A stretch of DNA of 64,000 bases from Bdellovibrio bacteriovorus (lineage in GTDB: Bacteria; Bdellovibrionota; Bdellovibrionia; Bdellovibrionales; Bdellovibrionaceae): NCBI RefSeq assembly GCF_001592735.1, contig NZ_LUKE01000003.1, forward strand, positions 62,001-126,000. The letters run 5' to 3'. Under the pieces are notes generated by a model, which did no database searches, had not been told where the DNA came from, and was given only the letters and a program-made list of their open reading frames with translations. This document shows positions 2,540-55,445 of this stretch, in pieces (position 1 is the stretch's first letter; the number at the start of each line of letters is the position of its first letter). Position numbers and translations under genes: made by a program.

Positions 2540-3457
2540 TTATCGCGAAAGTGCCGCGATGTTGGTGCGGATCCAGTCAAGGTAAAGCGGAACTAAAGTG
2601 TCATAACCTTTAGCTTGGGACGAAGACCACCAGTTCGGGCGAGTGTCGACGCAGTCGCCATTAGTGGTTGTGGAGTGCACGCCCACCACGATCAGACCAC
2701 TAGAACTTGAACGAATGTAAGAAGGGCCGCCAGAATCTCCCGAACACACCGAGTCCCCTTTAGATAAAAGCATCATAGGTAAAGCCCAAGAAGTTCTTTC
2801 AACAACGCTGGCTTTTGATTTGGTCCACAGTAAGGGTTTGGCTTCAGTTAAGCTCATCAAAGCGGCGACAAAGTCCAACATTTCAGCTTCCGTCTTTGGT
2901 GGATGGGCCTTTGATTTTTCAATCAAGGCTTTTCCTTCCGGGGACTCTTTGATCTCTTCGGCCGTCATTTGATGACCGTTAACACCATAACCGGCAACCA
3001 ACACTTCTTGATTTTTTTGGGGACGCCAGTTTTTTGAAGGTAATTGCGCGGGGATAGCGCCCGTCACGGGATTGGCAATTTTAACCAGCGCTATATCATT
3101 TTGAACAAGCTCGCCAAAGCCCTCCACGGTATGTTCACTGAAGCCTTCATGGATGACCACTTTAACGACGGGAACCTGCACCTTCATGCCTTTTGCGTTG
3201 GTGTAAGCGATCTTATAGGTGATGTTTTTTTTATGACCGAAGCAGTGACCCGCCGTCAATAAAACGGTCGGACTAATAAGTGTGGCCGTACAAGATGGCA
3301 GTTTCAAAGTTGGTATCTGGGCGTCAGTAAGGACCAATTGAAACGTCGCTCGTTCAATCAGATCGTTTTTAAGAACCGGGTTCCCCTTATAAATAGCCAA
3401 TGCATTTAAAGACGAAAACGCCACCGAAAGGCCTAAAGCCAACGCCATTTTTTTCAT
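2540..3457 (-). CDS. Secreted trypsin-like serine protease (S1)
   Basis: A chymotrypsin-fold endopeptidase. Counting from the ATG at 3457 (preceded by GAGGATCTTT; a GTG four codons upstream is less likely), residues 1-21 are a signal peptide, His71 lies in LLTAGHC, Asp121 in NDIALV, and Ser242 in SGDSGGP. Cys56/Cys72 and further cysteines near the active serine could form disulfides. Residues of about 162-220 form an unusual Lys/Glu-rich insertion between the two barrels. There is no long propeptide. It probably acts in the periplasm, prey or medium. A conserved upstream element (3473-3537) is shared with the deacetylase gene at 32.1-33.0 kb. Confidence 0.92.
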   Translation of the reverse strand: MKKMALALGLSVAFSSLNALAIYKGNPVLKNDLIERATFQLVLTDAQIPTLKLPSCTATLISPTVLLTAGHCFGHKKNITYKIAYTNAKGMKVQVPVVKVVIHEGFSEHTVEGFGELVQNDIALVKIANPVTGAIPAQLPSKNWRPQKNQEVLVAGYGVNGHQMTAEEIKESPEGKALIEKSKAHPPKTEAEMLDFVAALMSLTEAKPLLWTKSKASVVERTSWALPMMLLSKGDSVCSGDSGGPSYIRSSSSGLIVVGVHSTTTNGDCVDTRPNWWSSSQAKGYDTLVPLYLDWIRTNIAALSR

Positions 3458-3472
3458 AAAGATCCTCACTTG

Positions 3473-3537
3473 CCAGGGCTTCTAAGCAAGTGCAGGACCG
3501 TCGGAAATAAGGATGGATTGTGCCTAAAATGCCTAAT
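3473..3537 (-). promoter_or_regulatory. Conserved upstream element, copy 1 (before the serine protease)
   Basis: Read on the minus strand it contains ATTAGGCATTTTAG, then CCGACGGTCC, then CACTTGCTTAG, ending about 25 bp before the protease ATG. A second copy lies at 33059-33124 at nearly the same distance from another secreted hydrolase. The CTAAGCAAGTG block is identical in both, and about 30 of the next 45 positions match without gaps. No recognisable coding sequence explains the conservation. I infer a shared promoter or operator; the sigma factor is unknown. Confidence 0.6.
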
Positions 3538-3586
3538 AGAAAGGCTTCTTTACCTTTTTTCAGGGGAGCGCCCAAGAGCGGCTCTT

Positions 3587-6538
3587 TTACCCGTGCCCCG
3601 AAAGCAGCGCTTTTTCAACTTTCTCCATGCGCATTTTAAGCTCGGTGTTTTCTTGTTGAAGCCTTAAAATCTCTTTATTGGCGGCTTCAAGCTCGGCCTT
3701 GCTGGCTTTATCTTGATCCATGATGTTGAGCTTCTGATAAAGCGTTTTTATCGCCTCAATCAACGGAGCCACCAAGGCCGTGTATTGAACGGATTTATAT
3801 CCTTCGTTATCGGTGATCACGGCTTCGGGAAATTGTTTTTCAACTTCTTGCGCGATCACGCCTAACTGATGTCGTTCGTTAAATTTCTTGTCTGGAAATT
3901 CTTGCGCACGCCAATCATAGGTCACCCCCCGAATTTCTAAAAGTTTCTCTAAAGGATTATTTATGGTGGCGATATTGCGTTTAAATCTTTCATCCGACGT
4001 TTGAATGGCGCCATTGGGGGATCGGTAATAGCCACTCGTGTAAGTATCACCCACCACGTGCAAAGGATAACTGGGTCCATTAGTGCCGATACCCACATAG
4101 CCATTGTGTTGGATGATCAAACGATTGGCGCGGGTGGTGGTGCCATTGGCTGTGGTCTGAAACACAAAGGCCGAACCTGCCCCAGTGGCGGTGTGATTTT
4201 CGGTGGCAACTCCGGCAAGTAAAATGGAAGGTGAGCCCCAAGCGTTGCCGCTGTGATAAGTGGACCCCACAATGGCAAAGTAATTGTCATTGGCAACCAC
4301 CGGCTGGCGTGCGGTGTGCGTCCCACGGGATTTATAAAATTCCATTTGATGTCCGTTGGCGTTATTGCTGGCATGATTGTGAACGGTGTACCCCGAAAAT
4401 TGTTCGACCGTCGTCCATGCATAAATACGACTTCCTAAATCCATCACATTGTTCACCGCTCCACTCACGCGGGTCCAAAATCGCAAGCCCGAGGATTCGG
4501 TGCCTGAAGTCAAGCTGTCTGCATACGGCTCTATGGAGGCGGCCTCAAAGGCATTGCCCCCGGCATTATTCATATAGCCCGCAAATTTTCCGGAGTGAGT
4601 GTGAATATCACCACCTACCGTCAAGGGAGCGGTGGGATTCGTGTGACGAACTCCCACTCTGCCGCCGGAAGGATTTAATAAAATATCTCCTTTGGTGGCG
4701 TCACTTGACGCATGCAAGGTGAGGTCCGCACCGCTAGTGGTTCCTCCATACAAAGTTTGTCCCGCACCTCGTCCGGCAAGAAGTGCATACTGAGAAAAAT
4801 GATCGCTGGATTTAGCAAGAAAACTGGGCGCGCCCGAAGAGTTTGTTAAAAGAACGCTGTCGTTTGCTGTCGCCAGTCCGCCCACCACATTGTTGGCAGA
4901 AGAATATAAAATCTGATGGATCGATGTCGTACTAGGAAAGCTGGCCGTGCTGAATGCGGGACCCGTAGGCGTGTGTTGCAAAACCGATCCGTTCACCGTT
5001 CCGGCAACAGTGGTTAAAGCAGTTCCTCCTGAATTTGAGGCGATAACACTTGAACCCGAAAAGCTTGTCGCCCCCGTACCGCCATTGGCTAAGGGTAAAC
5101 TGCCACTCACATCGCTGCTAAGGGCGACGCTATGACCTCCCGAAAGCACACCGCCGCCTGAGTTTTTAACAAAACCGCCCGATGACATTCCCGACAGCGT
5201 CAGTCCGGCAAAAGTGGGGGAGGCCGCATTGTGAATATTTTGCGGTGTACTTAAGGTGATCGAGTTTGCACCATGACTGACCGAGATCTGATTTGAAGTG
5301 CCACTTAAAGATTTATATTCATAACCATTCGCTGCGTTGTTCATTCCTAAAATCTGATGGGCGGATCCTAGCGAGCTCAGCCCGGCAAGGGAGAGCGTCG
5401 GGGTCGCACCACCAGAGGAACTCAACGGAGACGTCGCATTTACTGCTGTCACCGTCCCACTGTTTAAGCTTTGCCACGACAAAACGCCCGTCGTGTCGGC
5501 CACTAAAGCTTGCCCCGAAACTGAAGGAGCGGCTGCCGGAAGTCGCAACGGACTGGGCGCCCAGCTGCTGCCGTTATATTGCAAAACTTGGTTGGTGCTA
5601 GGGGCGGTGGCAGAAATCGCGACACCCTTAATTTTATCGACGGAGGTGGAGCTTTGATTTCCGCTGACGTCGCCACTGAGTGCGCCGGTAAAGCCTGCCG
5701 CATTTTGTGAAGCCAAGTCACTGGCACTGAGTTTTCCGTTAAAGGTCGCCCAGTCGGTGGAAGTCAAATATCCATTTTGGGAACTGCTGGCCGCAGGGAT
5801 CGTGATATGTGGAGTGGTGCTGGCATTCGTCACCGCAAGAGGAGATCCCACTGAGACCGTCGTGACTGTTCCGCCAGCACCGGCAGAAACAGAAGCACAT
5901 CCGAATTTAAGAGTACTTGCATCCCAAGTTAAAAATTGACCGCCATTACAAGACACCGATCCCGCTCCGGAGTTATTGATATCTGACTTAATAAGAAAAT
6001 CACTCGCCGCATAGGGGCCCAGCTTTTGTGCGGAACGTGCATAACCGGCTAACGGCACCGCGCGAATAGCCGTGTCGGGCGTGATGGCTTTCCAACCTTG
6101 ACCATCATGAAAGCTCACCGATAAAACCCGACCATCTGATGCGAGAGGTGTATAGGTGCTAGAGCCTGCGGTGCAGGTATATCCGGAACACACGCCGCAA
6201 GCAGCAGCGCTGGAATTATTAAATACGTCGATAACGGTCGCGGGGCCCGCGGGCCAAGAGATGGTTCCCATTCCAATGGGCACATCAAAAACGCCATTGG
6301 ATCCGGACATGTTGATCCCGGTGACGTGCTCTTGATAAATCACGCAAGCGCCCGATGGATCTTTGATTTGAAAAAGGAAGCTGACGTTTGCATATTGCAA
6401 AGGTGTGCCGTCAGTCTTAACAATACGTCCTTGATATGTTAATGAGGTCGACGTCGCCGCGACCACCGCCAATGCCGCAGGTGTTGCGCCCCAAATTAAA
6501 AAAAGTATTGTGAATAATCTCGATATTAATCGTGTCAT
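3587..6538 (-). CDS. Giant secreted fibre/adhesin with C-terminal S74 intramolecular chaperone domain
   Basis: A 983-residue protein counted from the ATG at 6538 (GAGGG five bases upstream; signal peptide MTRLISRLFTILFLIWGATP follows). The middle 750 residues are Ser/Thr/Gly/Ala-rich with many short beta repeats such as SLSSLGSAHQIL, as in trimeric phage-tail-like fibres. The last 136 residues begin at Ser848-Asp849-Glu-Arg-Phe-Lys and form an endosialidase-type (Peptidase_S74) domain, which in known members trimerises the fibre and cleaves itself before that serine. A coiled coil ends the protein. It probably makes a surface fibre used in adhesion. A sigma-28-like promoter lies about 70 bp upstream. 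Confidence 0.85.
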   Translation of the reverse strand: MTRLISRLFTILFLIWGATPAALAVVAATSTSLTYQGRIVKTDGTPLQYANVSFLFQIKDPSGACVIYQEHVTGINMSGSNGVFDVPIGMGTISWPAGPATVIDVFNNSSAAACGVCSGYTCTAGSSTYTPLASDGRVLSVSFHDGQGWKAITPDTAIRAVPLAGYARSAQKLGPYAASDFLIKSDINNSGAGSVSCNGGQFLTWDASTLKFGCASVSAGAGGTVTTVSVGSPLAVTNASTTPHITIPAASSSQNGYLTSTDWATFNGKLSASDLASQNAAGFTGALSGDVSGNQSSTSVDKIKGVAISATAPSTNQVLQYNGSSWAPSPLRLPAAAPSVSGQALVADTTGVLSWQSLNSGTVTAVNATSPLSSSGGATPTLSLAGLSSLGSAHQILGMNNAANGYEYKSLSGTSNQISVSHGANSITLSTPQNIHNAASPTFAGLTLSGMSSGGFVKNSGGGVLSGGHSVALSSDVSGSLPLANGGTGATSFSGSSVIASNSGGTALTTVAGTVNGSVLQHTPTGPAFSTASFPSTTSIHQILYSSANNVVGGLATANDSVLLTNSSGAPSFLAKSSDHFSQYALLAGRGAGQTLYGGTTSGADLTLHASSDATKGDILLNPSGGRVGVRHTNPTAPLTVGGDIHTHSGKFAGYMNNAGGNAFEAASIEPYADSLTSGTESSGLRFWTRVSGAVNNVMDLGSRIYAWTTVEQFSGYTVHNHASNNANGHQMEFYKSRGTHTARQPVVANDNYFAIVGSTYHSGNAWGSPSILLAGVATENHTATGAGSAFVFQTTANGTTTRANRLIIQHNGYVGIGTNGPSYPLHVVGDTYTSGYYRSPNGAIQTSDERFKRNIATINNPLEKLLEIRGVTYDWRAQEFPDKKFNERHQLGVIAQEVEKQFPEAVITDNEGYKSVQYTALVAPLIEAIKTLYQKLNIMDQDKASKAELEAANKEILRLQQENTELKMRMEKVEKALLSGHG

Positions 6539-6608
6539 CACGCCCTCAAAATAACGCTCCGTAAAATTCCGTTTTGCAAAACCTGACAACGCCTACATTA
6601 TAAAATGT

Positions 6609-32126: not shown

Positions 32127-33038
32127 TTATTGGTATTGCTCTAGAATACGAAGGTCATTTAAGTTCACAAATGAATATCCCTCTTGCAAAAGTGCCGGAA
32201 TAAACTGTGAAACCATATCGACCGTATTCAAAGTCAAATCATGCATCAACACCACACCGCCACCTTTGCGGCGAGTTTCTTTTAAGTACCCTGCTAAGCA
32301 CACATCCACGGGCACTGCTGAATAGCCAAATTTTTTGCTTGAAGACCAGCAATCCCAGTCGGCGGCTTGTGTGATCTCTGCCGCGGTCTTAGGACGAACT
32401 CCTGTCACGGCACCCGTTTTATAGTTCGCGATGACGTTTGGAACCAGCGCGCCGCCGATACTCCAATAAACCGGACCAATATAATCACGAACCGAAGCAA
32501 TCGCATTCAGCTTGGCCGCGTGGGTGGAATTCCAAGCGCCATACGGAGCACGGAAATATCGGGGCAAGGCCGGCGACATATATTTGCGGATCACCTTATC
32601 AGACTCGACCACCTCTTTTAAAAGCATGTCGTTATATTGCTCATACAGATGTGAACCTAAGTTTGCGTGAGAGTAGGAGTGATTGCCGATGGTGTGGCCT
32701 TCGTCTTTCATGCGCTTCATAATTTCAGGATATTTTTTAGCATTTTGGGCTAAGACAAAGAACGTGGCCTTGATATTGTAAATGCGCAAGATATCTAAAA
32801 GAACGGGCGTGGCTTCTGGGGACGGGCCATCATCGAAAGTAAGAACAACTTTTTTGGTATTACCAAGATCGAAAGTGCCGATGCTTTTGGTTTGAAAAAG
32901 GGGATCGCTGCCGTCAGTGTTAATGTCTCCCGAAAAGCTTTCGTTATTTTTGTCCGTACATCCAGACATCGTCATGGCGGTCAGACTTAAAGATAAACAA
33001 ACCATCGCCGAAGCTTTGATAAATCGAGAAACGTTCAT
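32127..33038 (-). CDS. Polysaccharide deacetylase lipoprotein
   Basis: A NodB-fold carbohydrate esterase (CE4). The ATG at 33038 has AAGGAG six bases upstream. Residues 1-20 are a lipoprotein signal with lipobox MSGC. The NodB motifs are visible: motif 1 TFDDGPS, motif 2 HTIGNHSYSH (HxxxH), motif 3 RYFRAPYGAW, and late motif VVLMHD. Family members deacetylate peptidoglycan, chitin or other glycans. Bdellovibrio is known to deacetylate prey wall, so this fits prey invasion. It shares the conserved upstream element with the serine protease at 2.5-3.5 kb. Confidence 0.9.
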   Translation of the reverse strand: MNVSRFIKASAMVCLSLSLTAMTMSGCTDKNNESFSGDINTDGSDPLFQTKSIGTFDLGNTKKVVLTFDDGPSPEATPVLLDILRIYNIKATFFVLAQNAKKYPEIMKRMKDEGHTIGNHSYSHANLGSHLYEQYNDMLLKEVVESDKVIRKYMSPALPRYFRAPYGAWNSTHAAKLNAIASVRDYIGPVYWSIGGALVPNVIANYKTGAVTGVRPKTAAEITQAADWDCWSSSKKFGYSAVPVDVCLAGYLKETRRKGGGVVLMHDLTLNTVDMVSQFIPALLQEGYSFVNLNDLRILEQYQ

Positions 33039-33058
33039 AACATGCTCCTTATTCGTAC

Positions 33059-33124
33059 CCGGACTTACTAAGCAAGTGATAGGCCGTCTGAATTGAGGGT
33101 GAACTAGGGCTAAAACGCCCAATA
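33059..33124 (-). promoter_or_regulatory. Conserved upstream element, copy 2 (before the deacetylase)
   Basis: On the minus strand: ATTGGGCGTTTTAG, then CAGACGGCCT, then CACTTGCTTAG ending about 30 bp before the start codon. It aligns without gaps over 45 bp to copy 1 (3473-3537), plus an identical 11-bp core. Confidence 0.6.
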
Positions 33125-33276
33125 AGTCCGATATGGAACCTTTTTATAGGGTGGGGACGATTAATGTCACTCTCCGCACTCCGGTTTTGCCGTTCCTATA
33201 AACTGGCAGTGGTTTGCTCTGCCTTCAATAGAGTCTTCCCAACGAACTCTGTCATGTGCATTCCAATATGGGAAAA

Positions 33277-33320
33277 ATAACGCGCTGGTGCTACCCACGT
33301 AGGTAGCACCAGCGCGTTAT
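33277..33320. repeat. Perfect 19-bp inverted repeat with 6-nt loop
   Basis: The arms ATAACGCGCTGGTGCTACC and GGTAGCACCAGCGCGTTAT are exactly complementary around a 6-nt loop. On the minus strand the stem runs into TTATTTTTCCC, so it could be a terminator, but no minus-strand gene lies upstream of it. It may be a cruciform or protein site. Confidence 0.8.
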
Positions 33321-49900: not shown

Positions 49901-52705
49901 ATGCCGAAACTCCGCTATCCACGTCTTCAACGCTTACGTCAATTCTTTGTTCTCTCACACGAGTGGAATGTTTTTATCATCCTGCTGATTATCATTGCTA
50001 TCAGTCTTACCAGTTGGTGGACGGTGAAGGTGCATCTTGAAAAGGAATGGAAAGCACGTTTAGCGGCAGAATCGGGCAAAGTCATGGCCCGTATTGAGCG
50101 AGAATTCGAAGGTTACAGTCAGTCTTTAAGTGATGCGCGTGCCTTTATTCAAACCGGCGGCATGCCGACCCCTAAGCAGTTTCAACGCTATATCGAATCT
50201 TCAGAACTGTTCCGTCGTTTTCCGGGACTGCAGGGAATTGCCTTCACGGAAAAAATGGATCGCGCCTCCATCCCGGTGTTTGAAAAGCGCATGCGCAGCT
50301 ATGGGTATCCGGATTTTAACTATTGGCCGCAAGGGGATCAGGCTCTTTATACATCAATCAGTCTGATACAACCGGAAGATTGGAGAAATAAAAAAGCCCT
50401 GGGCTATGACATGTATTCCGAGCCCATTCGTCGCGAAGCGATGGATAAAGCCTTAAAAACCGGGCGGCCGTCAATGACCGATCCGATCACGTTGGTGCAG
50501 GATACGACGGAGGTCACCCCGCAAATAGGTTTGTTAGTTTATTTACCGGTTCTTAAGGACAACCCGGATGCAAAAGATCCGCGTGAAAGCTTGCTGGGAT
50601 TTTCCTACTCTATTGTTAACATAACTAAGTTTTTTAATGGGACTTTGGGAGTACCCCAGTTTTATAACGAAAAAGTCAATTACCGTTTAGAGGCCTTTGA
50701 TCGCCGGCTCGACCGTTATGTTCCTTTGTATGAACGCTTTTCGGGGGAGGTCCAAGGTGCGATGACCCCCGGTGAAGTGAAGATGGTCCAAGAGGTTCCA
50801 GTTTTTGATAAAACCTGGCGAATTACTTTTGTGCCATTACCTCATTTCTTTAACTGGTATGAACGCTATATCCCGATCTTATTTGCCTTTGTGACTCTGG
50901 TGATGTTGTCGGTGATTTTTTTGGCTTTATGGTCAACACAACAGTTTTTAAAATTCAGCGAAAAGCATAAGGATTCTTTAGCGCAGATTTCAAAAAATAA
51001 ATCAGACGAAATTCTTTTAATTCGACGTTTGAATGCGGTGATTGCGGATCTTTCTTCCGCCATTGATGCCCAACCTCTTTTTGAAAAATTCCGCGCTCAC
51101 TTGCATGAAGTTTTTGAGGTCAGCGATTGCGTCGTTTACGTGCGGGAAGATCGCGGTCCTTACGAAAAGCGTTTCGAAGGAGAGCTTTCCGTATTTCCGG
51201 ACACCTTGGATCTTCCTTGGGAGTTTGATCAGTTCTTGGCAGAGAAGGTTTTTGACACTCGTTCTAAAGCCGAAGGTCTGCCGAAGCTTTTTTCATGGTT
51301 CTCTCCCGAAGTTCGTCGCATCTTAGAGAGCGCTCCGTATTATGTCGGTCGTTCAGTTATGCACGAATCGGGCAAAAGCACATCCGTATTAATTCTGATG
51401 AAAGGCACGCAGAATCTGGTGGCGGGTACCATTATGGAATATGCGCTGGTCAGTATGATTGGGCAGTTTGCGATGTCTTACGATAAGGCGATTTTACTTC
51501 GCCGTGCCGAAGATGCCAACGTCATGAAGAGCTCGTTTTTAGCTAATATGAGTCACGAAATTCGCACTCCGTTGGGCGTGATTGTCGGGTATTCGGAGAT
51601 TCTGGCTGAAGATGATTTAGAAAAACAAGAAAAACAGCAGATCGTAAAAAGTGTTAAACGCAATGGTAAAGAGCTGGCGCGGTTGATTGATGATATTTTA
51701 GATATTTCAAAAGTCGAAGCCGGAAAGCTGCACTTTGAAATGGCCCAGGTGAATTTAGAAAATCTGGTGCAAGAAATTAAATCGATCATGGAAGTGCGTG
51801 CGACGGATCGTAAAATTCAATTTAACGTCGCTAAACTTAGCAATGTTCCTAATTATATTATTACCGATGACATCCGCCTAAAACAGATTTTGGTGAACGT
51901 CGTCGGTAATGCCGTGAAGTTCACTGAAAAAGGTGGCGTCAAGTTGCTGTACAAAACGAGTTTGGACGAACACGGTCACGAAGTGATCGAATTCCAAATT
52001 CAGGACAGCGGAATTGGTATTAGTGAAAGACACAGGCAAAATCTGTTTAAAGCCTTTTCTCAGGGTGATGTATCCACAACGCGCAAGTACGGCGGTACGG
52101 GGTTGGGTTTAGCTCTTTCTAAGCGTTTGGCCGAGCTTTTAGGTGGGGATCTTTACTTACTAGAATCTTCCGTCGGCAAGGGGTCAACGTTCAGTCTGCG
52201 CATTCCATTTAAGCAGGCCTCAACATCCTTGCCTCTTCCTCGGCAGGATGTGAACGCGGCCAAGGTGGCCCATGCCTTTGAAGAAAGCAGTCTGCGCCCT
52301 ATTGATTGGCAAAGTTTGGATCTGCATCATCTTTTAAAGGGTGTACGCATCTTGTTGGTGGAAGACTCTGAAGATAATCAAGAAATCTTTCAGCACTTCT
52401 TAAACAATGCGGGTGCTGAAGTGCGTGTGGCCGAAGACGGTGAAAAAGGGGTGGCGGAAACCTTTGCTTGGGATCCGGATTTGGTTTTAATGGATATTCA
52501 AATTCCCAAAAAAGATGGCAAACAGGCCACGCGTGAAATTCGCCGTCGCGGCTTTACTAAGCCTGTGATTGCCTTGACGGCTCATGCGTTGACCGAAGAA
52601 ATTGAAAGCTGCTTAGATGCGGGCTGTAATGGGCAGATCACAAAGCCCGTTTCTGGTGAGCTTTTGGTTCAGGAAGTTTATTTCTATTTAAATCATCGAG
52701 GTTGA
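49901..52705 (+). CDS. Hybrid sensor histidine kinase with CHASE domain
   Basis: 934 residues. TM1 (24-45), a CHASE-type extracytoplasmic sensor (60-290, FRRFPGLQGIAFTEKM is typical), TM2 (318-342), a GAF-like segment (375-530), HisKA with His552 (NMSHEIRTPLG), HATPase (N, G1, G2 boxes; GTGLGLAL), and a C-terminal receiver with Asp865 (VLMDIQIPKKDG). Its phosphate would go Asp865 to the Hpt protein encoded right after it. It starts at the ATG at 49901; no strong ribosome site. Confidence 0.95.
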   Translation: MPKLRYPRLQRLRQFFVLSHEWNVFIILLIIIAISLTSWWTVKVHLEKEWKARLAAESGKVMARIEREFEGYSQSLSDARAFIQTGGMPTPKQFQRYIESSELFRRFPGLQGIAFTEKMDRASIPVFEKRMRSYGYPDFNYWPQGDQALYTSISLIQPEDWRNKKALGYDMYSEPIRREAMDKALKTGRPSMTDPITLVQDTTEVTPQIGLLVYLPVLKDNPDAKDPRESLLGFSYSIVNITKFFNGTLGVPQFYNEKVNYRLEAFDRRLDRYVPLYERFSGEVQGAMTPGEVKMVQEVPVFDKTWRITFVPLPHFFNWYERYIPILFAFVTLVMLSVIFLALWSTQQFLKFSEKHKDSLAQISKNKSDEILLIRRLNAVIADLSSAIDAQPLFEKFRAHLHEVFEVSDCVVYVREDRGPYEKRFEGELSVFPDTLDLPWEFDQFLAEKVFDTRSKAEGLPKLFSWFSPEVRRILESAPYYVGRSVMHESGKSTSVLILMKGTQNLVAGTIMEYALVSMIGQFAMSYDKAILLRRAEDANVMKSSFLANMSHEIRTPLGVIVGYSEILAEDDLEKQEKQQIVKSVKRNGKELARLIDDILDISKVEAGKLHFEMAQVNLENLVQEIKSIMEVRATDRKIQFNVAKLSNVPNYIITDDIRLKQILVNVVGNAVKFTEKGGVKLLYKTSLDEHGHEVIEFQIQDSGIGISERHRQNLFKAFSQGDVSTTRKYGGTGLGLALSKRLAELLGGDLYLLESSVGKGSTFSLRIPFKQASTSLPLPRQDVNAAKVAHAFEESSLRPIDWQSLDLHHLLKGVRILLVEDSEDNQEIFQHFLNNAGAEVRVAEDGEKGVAETFAWDPDLVLMDIQIPKKDGKQATREIRRRGFTKPVIALTAHALTEEIESCLDAGCNGQITKPVSGELLVQEVYFYLNHRG

Positions 52706-52706
52706 T

Positions 52707-52997
52707 ATGTCGTCCGGAATGGCCGTTCCACTAGAATCCCAAGTTAAATATTTGCAGCGCCGAACGACCGAGCTTGCCCAGATTAGAAGTTCGCTTTTAA
52801 GCCAACCAGATTGGGATTTGGTAAAAAAAGTGGGCCATCAGATTAAGGGAAATGCTTCGACTTTTGGTTTTGCGCAGTTAACCGAGTTCGGGAAAAATCT
52901 TGAAGTCGCGGCGGCCCAAGGAGATGTTTTGCAGGCGCAACAAATCAGTGAGAAGTTAGAACAAGAAGTGCAGCGTCTGCTTAAAACAATCAGCTAA
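52707..52997 (+). CDS. Histidine phosphotransfer (Hpt) protein
   Basis: A four-helix 96-residue Hpt domain with phospho-His44 (GHQIKGNASTFGF). It starts one base after the kinase stop, with GAGG inside the kinase end, so the two are cotranslated. It should relay phosphate from the kinase's receiver to a response regulator, most likely the NtrC-type activator 1 kb downstream. Confidence 0.92.
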   Translation: MSSGMAVPLESQVKYLQRRTTELAQIRSSLLSQPDWDLVKKVGHQIKGNASTFGFAQLTEFGKNLEVAAAQGDVLQAQQISEKLEQEVQRLLKTIS

Positions 52998-53252
52998 TTA
53001 GCGAGTTTCGGTGGTGCGGCCGATCAAAATACGATAACAAAACAAAATTAATAAGGAACCCGCTACCGAAGAGATAAAGCCCGCGGGTTCATATTCGCGG
53101 TAATAGCCGGCTGTGGTGCCAATATAGTGAGCGACGGCGGCACCTGCGATTCCCAAAAGGCAGGTGATAATCCAGCCGCCAGGGTCTCGGCCCGGCATAA
53201 ATAGTTTTGCTGTCGCGCCGACAAGCAAGCCTAAAAGAATCGAGATGATCAT
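52998..53252 (-). CDS. GlsB/YeaQ/YmgE stress-response membrane protein
   Basis: 84 residues from the ATG at 53252 (AAGGAGG upstream). The transglycosylase-associated pattern ILLGLLVGATAKLFMPGRDPGG and GIAGAAVAHYIG is typical, with three membrane helices. The exact function is unknown; members rise under stress. It lies within the phosphorelay locus, on the same strand as and 12 bp after the OmpA-like lipoprotein gene. Confidence 0.9.
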   Translation of the reverse strand: MIISILLGLLVGATAKLFMPGRDPGGWIITCLLGIAGAAVAHYIGTTAGYYREYEPAGFISSVAGSLLILFCYRILIGRTTETR

Positions 53253-53264
53253 ATGCAACCTCCT

Positions 53265-53813
53265 TTATTCATAGCGAATCATAACTATGGCTTTAGAGGA
53301 TTTGTTTCCCGCTAAGGAAGACTTAGGCCCCTTGCCGAAGGATACGGGTTCGGTGTTTTTAAAAGTGATCTTACGTTTAGGATCTTCTTCGCGAATCAGT
53401 TCTGTGAATTTCTGCGGATCTTGACTCATGTTATAGACGGAAACAGGGGCACTTGATTTAAGGTCCGCTTTGATCAAGGAACGAACTTGGGTCGCCCTTT
53501 GGTCCGCAAGTTTTGGTTCTTGCACTTCGCTGTCGTCCGCCCATGCCAAAATTCGCACTTCGCTCACCGCTTGGCCGCTTTGTTCCGCCACGCGGGTCAG
53601 GGTTTTGATTTTTTCTTGTTCATGAGTTGAAAGATGCGTTTTACCCACTTGAAATTCCAAGACGGTGTAATGCGTGGTGGTGGTTGGTGTCGGACTTGTC
53701 ACGGCAATGGGGGTCACTTCGGTGTGCCCGTGAGTACTGCGATGCGCACACGCGTTCATCATGAGCGCCGCGGCCATTAAGAGGGTGTAAATCAAAGGGT
53801 GCGATTGAAACAT
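53265..53813 (-). CDS. OmpA-like lipoprotein (paralogue of the 55.6 kb protein)
   Basis: 182 residues from the ATG at 53813 (GGAG upstream). A lipoprotein signal ends in MMNAC. The soluble domain matches a stretch of the 55580-56113 protein: VLAW-G/ADxxx near the middle, a run of Ala/Gln/Arg-rich helix (LADQRATQVRSLI), and NMSQDPQKFTELI against NMAERPSKFSEIL. The overall layout resembles OmpA C-terminal peptidoglycan-binding domains. Both genes are next to the sigma-54 activator. Confidence 0.75.
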   Translation of the reverse strand: MFQSHPLIYTLLMAAALMMNACAHRSTHGHTEVTPIAVTSPTPTTTTHYTVLEFQVGKTHLSTHEQEKIKTLTRVAEQSGQAVSEVRILAWADDSEVQEPKLADQRATQVRSLIKADLKSSAPVSVYNMSQDPQKFTELIREEDPKRKITFKNTEPVSFGKGPKSSLAGNKSSKAIVMIRYE

Positions 53814-53870
53814 AATATCTCCATAAGAGCCTCGCGTCCTGCGGGGCAAAATAATCCTGAATCTAAACCT

Positions 53871-53886
53871 AGCAAGCTTGATACCG
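53871..53886 (-). promoter_or_regulatory. Weak sigma-54 promoter candidate of the OmpA-like lipoprotein
   Basis: On the minus strand CGGTAT-N5-TTGCT: -12 box perfect (TTGCT), GG and GC spaced by ten bases as required, -24 box only partly matching. It would start transcription about 45 bp before the ATG. Confidence 0.35.
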
Positions 53887-54002
53887 AAACGCCAAGGTCT
53901 AGTTTGCGGATAAAATTGATTTGATGTGCCAGAAACATTTCAATGTGGCAAAACTCCACATTTTTGTTGCGGACATCTGCCCCCTGGGGTGAATGTGGGG
54001 AC

Positions 54003-55445
54003 ATGGATAAACACACTCAAAAACAAATACTATTGATTGAAGACGATATCGACTTGGCCGAGTTGGCCACGGCCTATTTTAGACAAAAAGACATTCAGAT
54101 CACTCATTCGACAGATCCTTTGGAGGCCCTAAAACAAGTGACCTCAGGGAAGCTGGCACCAGATGCGATCATCACGGATTTGAATTTGCCGCTGATGTCG
54201 GGGGTCGATTTCATTCGCCAGCTGCGTGCTGAAGGCATGAATACACCGATCATTTTGATCACCGTTTCTAACGACGTCGAAACGGCTGTTCAAGCTATCG
54301 AAGCCGGGGCCTATGATTTCGTGGTGAAGCCTCTTCATTTCCCGCAGTTATTAATTTCTGCGCAACGGGCCTTTAAATACAATCATCTGAGCAATGAAAA
54401 TCGCACTTTGCGAGAGACCATCGATATTTCTAAAGGGCAACATCCGGAAGGTATTATCGGTAAATCCGAAAGTCTTTTGCGCATCATGGATTTAGCAAAA
54501 CGCGTTTCGAAAAGTGCGTCGACGGTTTCGATCACCGGGGAAAGCGGAACGGGGAAAGAAGTTTTTGCTAAAGCGATTCATAATTGGAGTCCGCGTAGTA
54601 AAAAACCCTTTGTCGCGATCAACTGTTCAGCCATTCCTGAAAATCTTTTAGAGTCTGAACTTTTTGGTCATGCGAAGGGTTCGTTCACGGGGGCTGTGGA
54701 TAAAAAAGTCGGTCTTTTTGAAGAAGCCGATGGTGGGACTTTGTTTTTAGATGAAATCGGGGATTTGAATTTAACCCTGCAAGCAAAGCTCTTACGTGTG
54801 CTTCAAGAAAAAGAAATCAAGCGTGTGGGTGAAAATCAATCACGCTCCGTAGATGTGCGGGTGATCGCCGCGACACATAAAGATTTGCGCCATGAGGTGC
54901 AAGAAAAACGCTTCCGTGAAGACTTGTTCTTCCGTCTGAATGTCATTCCTATTCGCATTCCGCCTTTGCGTGAGCGACGGGAAGATATCATTCCCCTGGC
55001 GGAGCACTTCCTAAGAAAATTCAATACGCTGAATGGAACGAACCTGACTGGATTTAAAAAATCAGCTAAGGAATTTTTGCTGACTCATCCATGGCGCGGA
55101 AATGTGCGTGAATTGGAAAATGCGATTGAGCGAGCGGTGGTGTTGGCCACGGGACCCGAGATTGATGTGACCGCGTTTACTTTATTTGAAGAGTCCGTCA
55201 CTCAGCAGTGGAGCCATGATGAAGATGCTAAAAATGCCTTCATCTTCCGTTTTGGTGACGACATTAAGCCTTTAAGCGAAGTGGAAAAGAAATACGTCCA
55301 GTTCGTTTATGAGCGAAATAACCGCGCCAAAGAGCTGACGGCAAAAGCCTTGGGTATCGACCGCAAGACCCTTTATCGCAAGCTTCAGGAAATTGAGGGT
55401 GGGGTTGCGGCAAATTCTCCTGCGGAGCTGAGTCATAACTCTTAA
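54003..55445 (+). CDS. NtrC-family sigma-54-dependent response regulator
   Basis: 480 residues from the ATG at 54003. The receiver (1-120) has Asp59 (ITDLNLPLMSG). The AAA+ domain has Walker A GESGTGKE, the GSFTGA loop that contacts sigma-54, and Walker B GGTLFLDEIGDL. A Fis-type HTH ends the protein (TAKALGIDRKTLYRKL). It is the probable output of the upstream kinase and Hpt. Candidate sigma-54 promoters lie on both sides. Confidence 0.95.
   Translation: MDKHTQKQILLIEDDIDLAELATAYFRQKDIQITHSTDPLEALKQVTSGKLAPDAIITDLNLPLMSGVDFIRQLRAEGMNTPIILITVSNDVETAVQAIEAGAYDFVVKPLHFPQLLISAQRAFKYNHLSNENRTLRETIDISKGQHPEGIIGKSESLLRIMDLAKRVSKSASTVSITGESGTGKEVFAKAIHNWSPRSKKPFVAINCSAIPENLLESELFGHAKGSFTGAVDKKVGLFEEADGGTLFLDEIGDLNLTLQAKLLRVLQEKEIKRVGENQSRSVDVRVIAATHKDLRHEVQEKRFREDLFFRLNVIPIRIPPLRERREDIIPLAEHFLRKFNTLNGTNLTGFKKSAKEFLLTHPWRGNVRELENAIERAVVLATGPEIDVTAFTLFEESVTQQWSHDEDAKNAFIFRFGDDIKPLSEVEKKYVQFVYERNNRAKELTAKALGIDRKTLYRKLQEIEGGVAANSPAELSHNS

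What the first reader, a model, noticed from the sequence alone, without database searches (positions are those of the whole stretch)
3473..3537. Conserved upstream element of about 60 bp shared with 33059-33124
The same non-coding sequence lies at the same place before a secreted serine protease and a lipoprotein deacetylase, 30 kb apart. CTAAGCAAGTG is identical, and about 30 of the next 45 positions match with no gaps. Such length exceeds a normal -35/-10 pair. It may mark a regulon of prey-attack hydrolases.
Basis: seen in the sequence. Interest (0 to 1): 0.6.

Follow-up and report, generated by a model that had tools for sequence, protein, structure and literature searches.

The report
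Matched promoter regions of two hydrolase genes
Two unrelated secreted-enzyme genes of a probable predatory bacterium carry nearly the same roughly 95-base control region just before their start codons, found nowhere else in the genome, so the two genes are probably switched on together, but there is no larger regulon behind it.

Summary
On the minus strand, 57 nt before a trypsin-family protease gene (3538→3482) and a lipoprotein CE4 deacetylase gene (33124→33068) match at 42/57 without gaps. With one 1-nt indel the match spans about 94 nt (roughly -90 to the presumed start of transcription), ending 24 and 29 nt before the ATGs. Among 356 gene-upstream regions on 446 kb of the contig, this pair scores 28; 60 dinucleotide-shuffled sets never exceeded 20 (Gumbel p ~7e-6). 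The proposed regulon is not supported: pattern and profile searches of the whole 3.93-Mb genome find exactly two copies, three partial matches examined elsewhere lie antisense to long open frames, and 369 genomes of the phylum hold no convincing copy. Neither copy has the Bdellovibrio attack-phase FliA box or a sigma-70 promoter, and the two do not share an RNA fold. Both copies do share a weak sigma-54-type core (GG-N10-GC, TTGCT) at 8 of 11 consensus positions; the genome has rpoN and 12 strong activator genes. Best reading: a duplicated or recruited activator-dependent promoter driving a private two-gene set. Sigma-54 dependence is only suggestive.

The parts
3482..3538 (-). Copy 1, 57-nt conserved upstream element
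   Evidence: 42/57 identical to copy 2, ungapped
3473..3565 (-). Copy 1, full conserved region: CCCT..AAAAAGGT block, TATTrGGCrTTTTAG block, GACGG, CACTTGCTTAG, AAGyCCkGG
   Evidence: Local alignment of upstream regions, score 29 versus shuffled mean 9.1 and maximum 14
3485..3500 (-). Copy 1 sigma-54-like -24/-12 core CGGTCCTGCACTTGCT (GG-N10-GC)
   Evidence: 8 of 11 positions of TGGCAC-N5-TTGCW; the only one of six sigma consensus models below 5% of the column-shuffle null, p 0.028 uncorrected
2540..3457 (-). Downstream gene 1: secreted trypsin-family serine protease
   Evidence: PF00089 E 2.8e-20; N-terminal signal-like stretch, TAGHC and GDSGGP motifs seen in the translation
33068..33124 (-). 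Copy 2, 57-nt conserved upstream element
   Evidence: 42/57 identical to copy 1, ungapped
33058..33151 (-). Copy 2, full conserved region
   Evidence: Local alignment of upstream regions
33071..33086 (-). Copy 2 sigma-54-like -24/-12 core CGGCCTATCACTTGCT (GG-N10-GC)
   Evidence: 8 of 11 consensus positions, same place in the element as copy 1
32127..33038 (-). Downstream gene 2: lipoprotein polysaccharide (peptidoglycan-type) deacetylase, CE4/NodB
   Evidence: PF01522 E 6e-35; PDB relatives are peptidoglycan GlcNAc deacetylases; lipobox-like TMSGC and TFDDGPS seen in the translation
53943..55445 (+). Possible but untested trans-acting partner: NtrC-type sigma-54 activator (receiver + AAA + Fis HTH)
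   Evidence: PF00158 E 1.4e-74, PF00072, PF02954; one of 12 strong activators in the genome. No evidence links it to the element.

Best explanation
The element is a DNA-level promoter and activator-binding region shared by two unlinked genes, a trypsin-family protease and a lipoprotein peptidoglycan-type deacetylase. It most likely arose when one promoter region was copied in front of the other gene and was then held by selection in blocks. The proposed working is as follows. One regulator binds the upstream blocks (AAAAAGGT about 80 nt, and TATTrGGCrTTTTAG about 50-64 nt, before the presumed start of transcription). RNA polymerase binds the GACGG...CACTTGCTTAG block, probably as a weak sigma-54-type -24/-12 site (GG-N10-GC). 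Transcription starts at the conserved GG some 18-22 nt before the ATG, so the two enzymes are made together. Shown: the shared blocks, their number, their position and orientation. Inferred: promoter function, co-regulation, the start site and the duplication. Only suggestive: sigma-54.
For: Similarity far beyond chance, at the same distance and orientation before two genes. Match confined to the upstream region and fading into ordinary Shine-Dalgarno sequence. No shared RNA fold. No sigma-70 promoter found by scan in either copy on the gene strand, which fits an activator-dependent promoter. Of six sigma consensus models, only RpoN scores above its column-shuffle null (p 0.028; others 0.38-0.998). 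rpoN is present, as are 12 strong sigma-54 activators. Both products act outside the cytoplasm.
Against: Only two copies exist, and no close relative carries the element or close orthologues of the two genes, so conservation through time cannot be shown; two-copy identity alone does not prove function. The sigma-54 match is weak (8 of 11, one of six models tested, not significant after correction), and strict sigma-54 sites are barely enriched over the reversed control in this genome (153 versus 128). The upstream blocks lie closer to the core than most activator sites (from general knowledge).
Confidence: 0.6

Rival explanations
1. Recent or neutral duplication: a short stretch of DNA carrying a promoter was copied once and the two copies are simply drifting apart; there is no common regulator today.
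For: Exactly two copies, both on one contig 29.6 kb apart; neither gene has a close orthologue in 23 other species of the genus.
Against: At 66% over 84 nt neutral drift should leave differences evenly spread and some indels; instead there are invariant blocks (11, 8 and 6 nt) and variable gaps, and only one 1-nt indel. This was not formally tested.
Confidence: 0.25
2. RNA element: the conserved stretch is transcribed as a structured leader (riboswitch or thermosensor-like) that controls both mRNAs.
For: Copy 1 can form a stem CACTTGC/GCAAGTG next to the Shine-Dalgarno sequence.
Against: Copy 2 lacks that stem and folds no better than shuffles (z -0.91 and +0.32); no Rfam match in the window.
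Confidence: 0.05
3. Coding remnant or shared leader peptide: one sense frame is open in both 57-mers (LGILGTIHPYFRRSCTCL / LGVLALVHPQFRRPITCL).
For: Peptide similarity above a mutation null in that frame, p 0.017 over 57 nt and 0.006 over 84 nt, uncorrected for six frames.
Against: Differences by codon position are 7, 3, 5: the first position changes most, unlike a conserved coding frame; in copy 1 the frame is not that of the protease and starts only at TTG; in copy 2 a TAA lies within the 84-nt match; no NCBIfam match.
Confidence: 0.05
4. FliA (sigma-28) attack-phase promoter, part of the known attack-phase programme of Bdellovibrio.
For: Two thirds of the mapped attack-phase promoters of B. 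bacteriovorus use TTAAG-N16-CCGATA, and their genes include proteases (PMC3627812).
Against: The best FliA match in the two copies is 6 and 5 of 11, below the shuffled mean.
Confidence: 0.03
5. Direct repeats left by insertion of a mobile island (attL/attR) between 3.5 and 33 kb.
For: Direct orientation and an identical 11-nt core, 29.6 kb apart.
Against: The genes between with Pfam matches are ordinary chromosomal genes (oligopeptide transporter, protease IV-like, Fpg, acyl-CoA dehydrogenase, RNase Y-like) and no integrase was found among them (several small ORFs have no match); the repeat sits exactly in two promoter positions and is diverged.
Confidence: 0.02

Closest known systems
Sigma-54 (RpoN) -24/-12 promoters
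   Same: GG-N10-GC with TTGCT, 8 of 11 consensus positions, at the same place in both copies; rpoN and activator genes present in the genome
   Different: Lacks the TGGCAC half (CGGTCC / CGGCCT); no other site in the genome looks like it; upstream conservation lies unusually close
B. bacteriovorus attack-phase FliA promoters (TTAAG-N16-CCGATA, PMC3627812)
   Same: Drive genes that include secreted proteases in related predators
   Different: The motif is absent here; 92 promoters there against 2 copies here
Paired promoters of a two-target transcription factor (generic small regulon)
   Same: Near-identical blocks at equal distance before two genes for exported enzymes
   Different: The regulator is unknown and co-expression is untested

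Membership tests
Sigma-54 promoters | Invariant GG-N10-GC | tested here: met
   CGGTCCTGCACTTGCT and CGGCCTATCACTTGCT
Sigma-54 promoters | Good overall match to TGGCAC-N5-TTGCW | tested here: inconclusive
   8 of 11 in each copy; column-shuffle p 0.028, one of six models tried
Sigma-54 promoters | rpoN and activators in the genome | tested here: met
   PF04552 E 4.3e-66; 12 strong PF00158 genes
Sigma-54 promoters | Transcription start about 12 nt after GC, dependent on RpoN | not testable with these tools
   No RNA data
FliA attack-phase promoters | TTAAG-N16-CCGATA before the gene | tested here: not met
   Best 6 and 5 of 11, below shuffles
Genome-wide regulon motif | Many copies before start codons | tested here: not met
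   Two copies only; three other core matches in the genome lie antisense to long open frames
Structured RNA leader | Common fold supported in both copies | tested here: not met
   Different folds, copy 2 no better than shuffles; no Rfam match

The most novel reading that the evidence does not exclude
A private, two-target control switch of this species: one activator, perhaps working with sigma-54, recognises a 95-bp promoter found at only two places and couples a secreted protease to a cell-wall deacetylase, outside the known FliA attack-phase programme.
Probability: 0.2. Interest if true: 0.4.

Novelty: new member of a known kind. Interest (0 to 1): 0.25.

Why it matters
In B. bacteriovorus, no motif was found for the third of attack-phase promoters that lack FliA boxes (PMC3627812), and deacetylation of prey wall is a known, early-expressed predation step (PMC4876506). 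If this genome belongs to such a predator, a shared non-FliA promoter joining a protease and a wall deacetylase would be a small, well-defined case for finding another regulator. As it stands it is a two-gene curiosity.

Tried and rejected
Regulon: pattern (3 mismatches) and profile search of the genome give two copies only; position-weight scan of 446 kb gives 108.5-109 bits for the two and 5.6 for the next. Wider copies: order (141 genomes) and phylum (369 genomes) searches give only chance-level matches (best E 0.045 per genome over 369 genomes); one exact core match in 2.9 million viral contigs, by my rough estimate no more than chance. RNA fold, Rfam, coding, FliA, RpoD, RpoE and RpoH promoters, attachment sites. 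Phylogenetic footprinting failed for lack of close orthologues.

Full report
What is there. Read in gene direction, copy 1 is TATTAGGCATTTTAGGCACAATCCATCCTTATTTCCGACGGTCCTGCACTTGCTTAG and copy 2 is TATTGGGCGTTTTAGCCCTAGTTCACCCTCAATTCAGACGGCCTATCACTTGCTTAG; 42 of 57 positions match without gaps. The match runs on upstream to a CCCT..AAAAAGGT block at the same spacing (84 nt ungapped) and downstream, after a 1-nt indel, through AAGyCCkGG, about 94 nt in all. The end of CACTTGCTTAG lies 24 nt before the protease ATG (3457) and 29 nt before the deacetylase ATG (33038).

Is it chance? A local alignment of the two upstream regions scores 29; 2000 shuffles gave at most 14. Among 356 crude gene-upstream regions on 446 kb of the contig, compared pairwise at near-equal distance from the start, this pair scores 28. 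The only other pair at 18 or above (24) consists of two overlapping divergent regions sharing a palindromic stretch. Sixty dinucleotide-shuffled sets gave maxima of 15-20, Gumbel p about 7e-6.

The genes. Gene 1 is a trypsin-family protease (PF00089) with a signal-like N-terminus and the TAGHC and GDSGGP motifs (read). Gene 2 is a CE4/NodB deacetylase (PF01522; PDB relatives are peptidoglycan GlcNAc deacetylases) with a lipobox-like TMSGC (read). The proteins are unrelated, so the similarity is confined to the control region. Neither has a close orthologue in 23 other species of the genus (best 50% and 41% identity over part of the protein).

How many copies? A 55-nt pattern with up to three mismatches finds exactly two places in the 3.93-Mb genome, as does a profile at E up to 10. 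That profile search has fast first filters, so very weak siblings could be missed; an unfiltered position-weight scan of 446 kb puts the two at about 109 bits and the next at 5.6, no better than shuffled sequence. The three other core matches with two mismatches in the genome lie antisense to open frames of 281-623 codons and carry 18-23 of the 42 shared letters. Order- and phylum-wide profile searches (141 and 369 genomes) give nothing convincing. The regulon idea therefore fails its own test; at most this is a two-member set.

What kind of signal? No sigma-70 promoter was found on the gene strand of either copy. For six sigma consensus models I took the best joint match of both copies and compared it with column shuffles: RpoD 0.98, FliA (Bdellovibrio consensus) 0.998, FliA (E. 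coli) 0.52, RpoE 0.88, RpoH 0.38, RpoN 0.028. The RpoN match, CGGTCCTGCACTTGCT / CGGCCTATCACTTGCT, holds the GG-N10-GC pair described for sigma-54 promoters (PMC3224230) and TTGCT, but not TGGCAC. After correction for six models it is not significant. The genome does have rpoN and 12 strong activator genes, one of them at 53943-55445 in this window behind a CHASE-domain kinase. Strict sigma-54 sites are not clearly enriched in the genome (153 versus 128 in the reversed control).

Other readings. A common RNA fold is not seen: copy 1 forms a stem next to its Shine-Dalgarno sequence, copy 2 does not, and there is no Rfam match. One sense frame is open in both 57-mers with similar peptides (p 0.017 and 0.006, uncorrected for six frames), but the first codon position changes most, the frame does not lead into the protease in copy 1, and copy 2 has a stop within the 84-nt match; I regard it as chance and leave it as a minor rival. 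A mobile-island repeat is unlikely because the interval holds ordinary genes and no integrase was found. Neutral drift after a single promoter duplication remains the main rival, since without related strains selection cannot be shown.

Context. In B. bacteriovorus HD100, 92 of 140 attack-phase promoters carry TTAAG-N16-CCGATA and the remaining third have no known motif (PMC3627812); HD100 encodes an RpoN-like factor, bd0843 (PMC3464611); and two GlcNAc deacetylases expressed early in predation act on prey wall (PMC4876506).

Verdict. A true, unusually long shared promoter region of two secreted-enzyme genes, limited to two copies. Co-regulation is likely, sigma-54 control possible, a broad prey-attack regulon not supported.

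Noticed in passing
window 33266-33308 (G000 C3:95266-95308) and G000 C3:37448-37490: A palindrome (GCGCTGGTGCTACCCACGTAGGTAGCACCAGCGC) in the intergenic region upstream of copy 2; its centre recurs about 58 kb away (GTGCTACCTACGTAGGTAGCA; 79% over 43 nt, E 0.078).
   Followed up: partly
G000 C3:222812-222861, 226774-226823, 231534-231619: Repeated GC-rich palindromic units (GGTAAGCCGGAGC...CGGTTCGGCC..GGCCGAACGCGGCTC, mostly 84-88% alike), REP-like, within 9 kb.
   Followed up: no
G000 C3:206490-206730: Divergent promoter region with several TATGCATA-like palindromes shared by both upstream regions; looks like an operator cluster.
   Followed up: no
window 49901-55445: CHASE-domain hybrid histidine kinase next to an NtrC-type sigma-54 activator, a probable two-component pair.
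   Followed up: no
window 3587-6589: A 1000-residue protein with a C-terminal endosialidase-chaperone (Peptidase_S74) domain, as in phage tail fibres, directly upstream of the protease gene.
   Followed up: no
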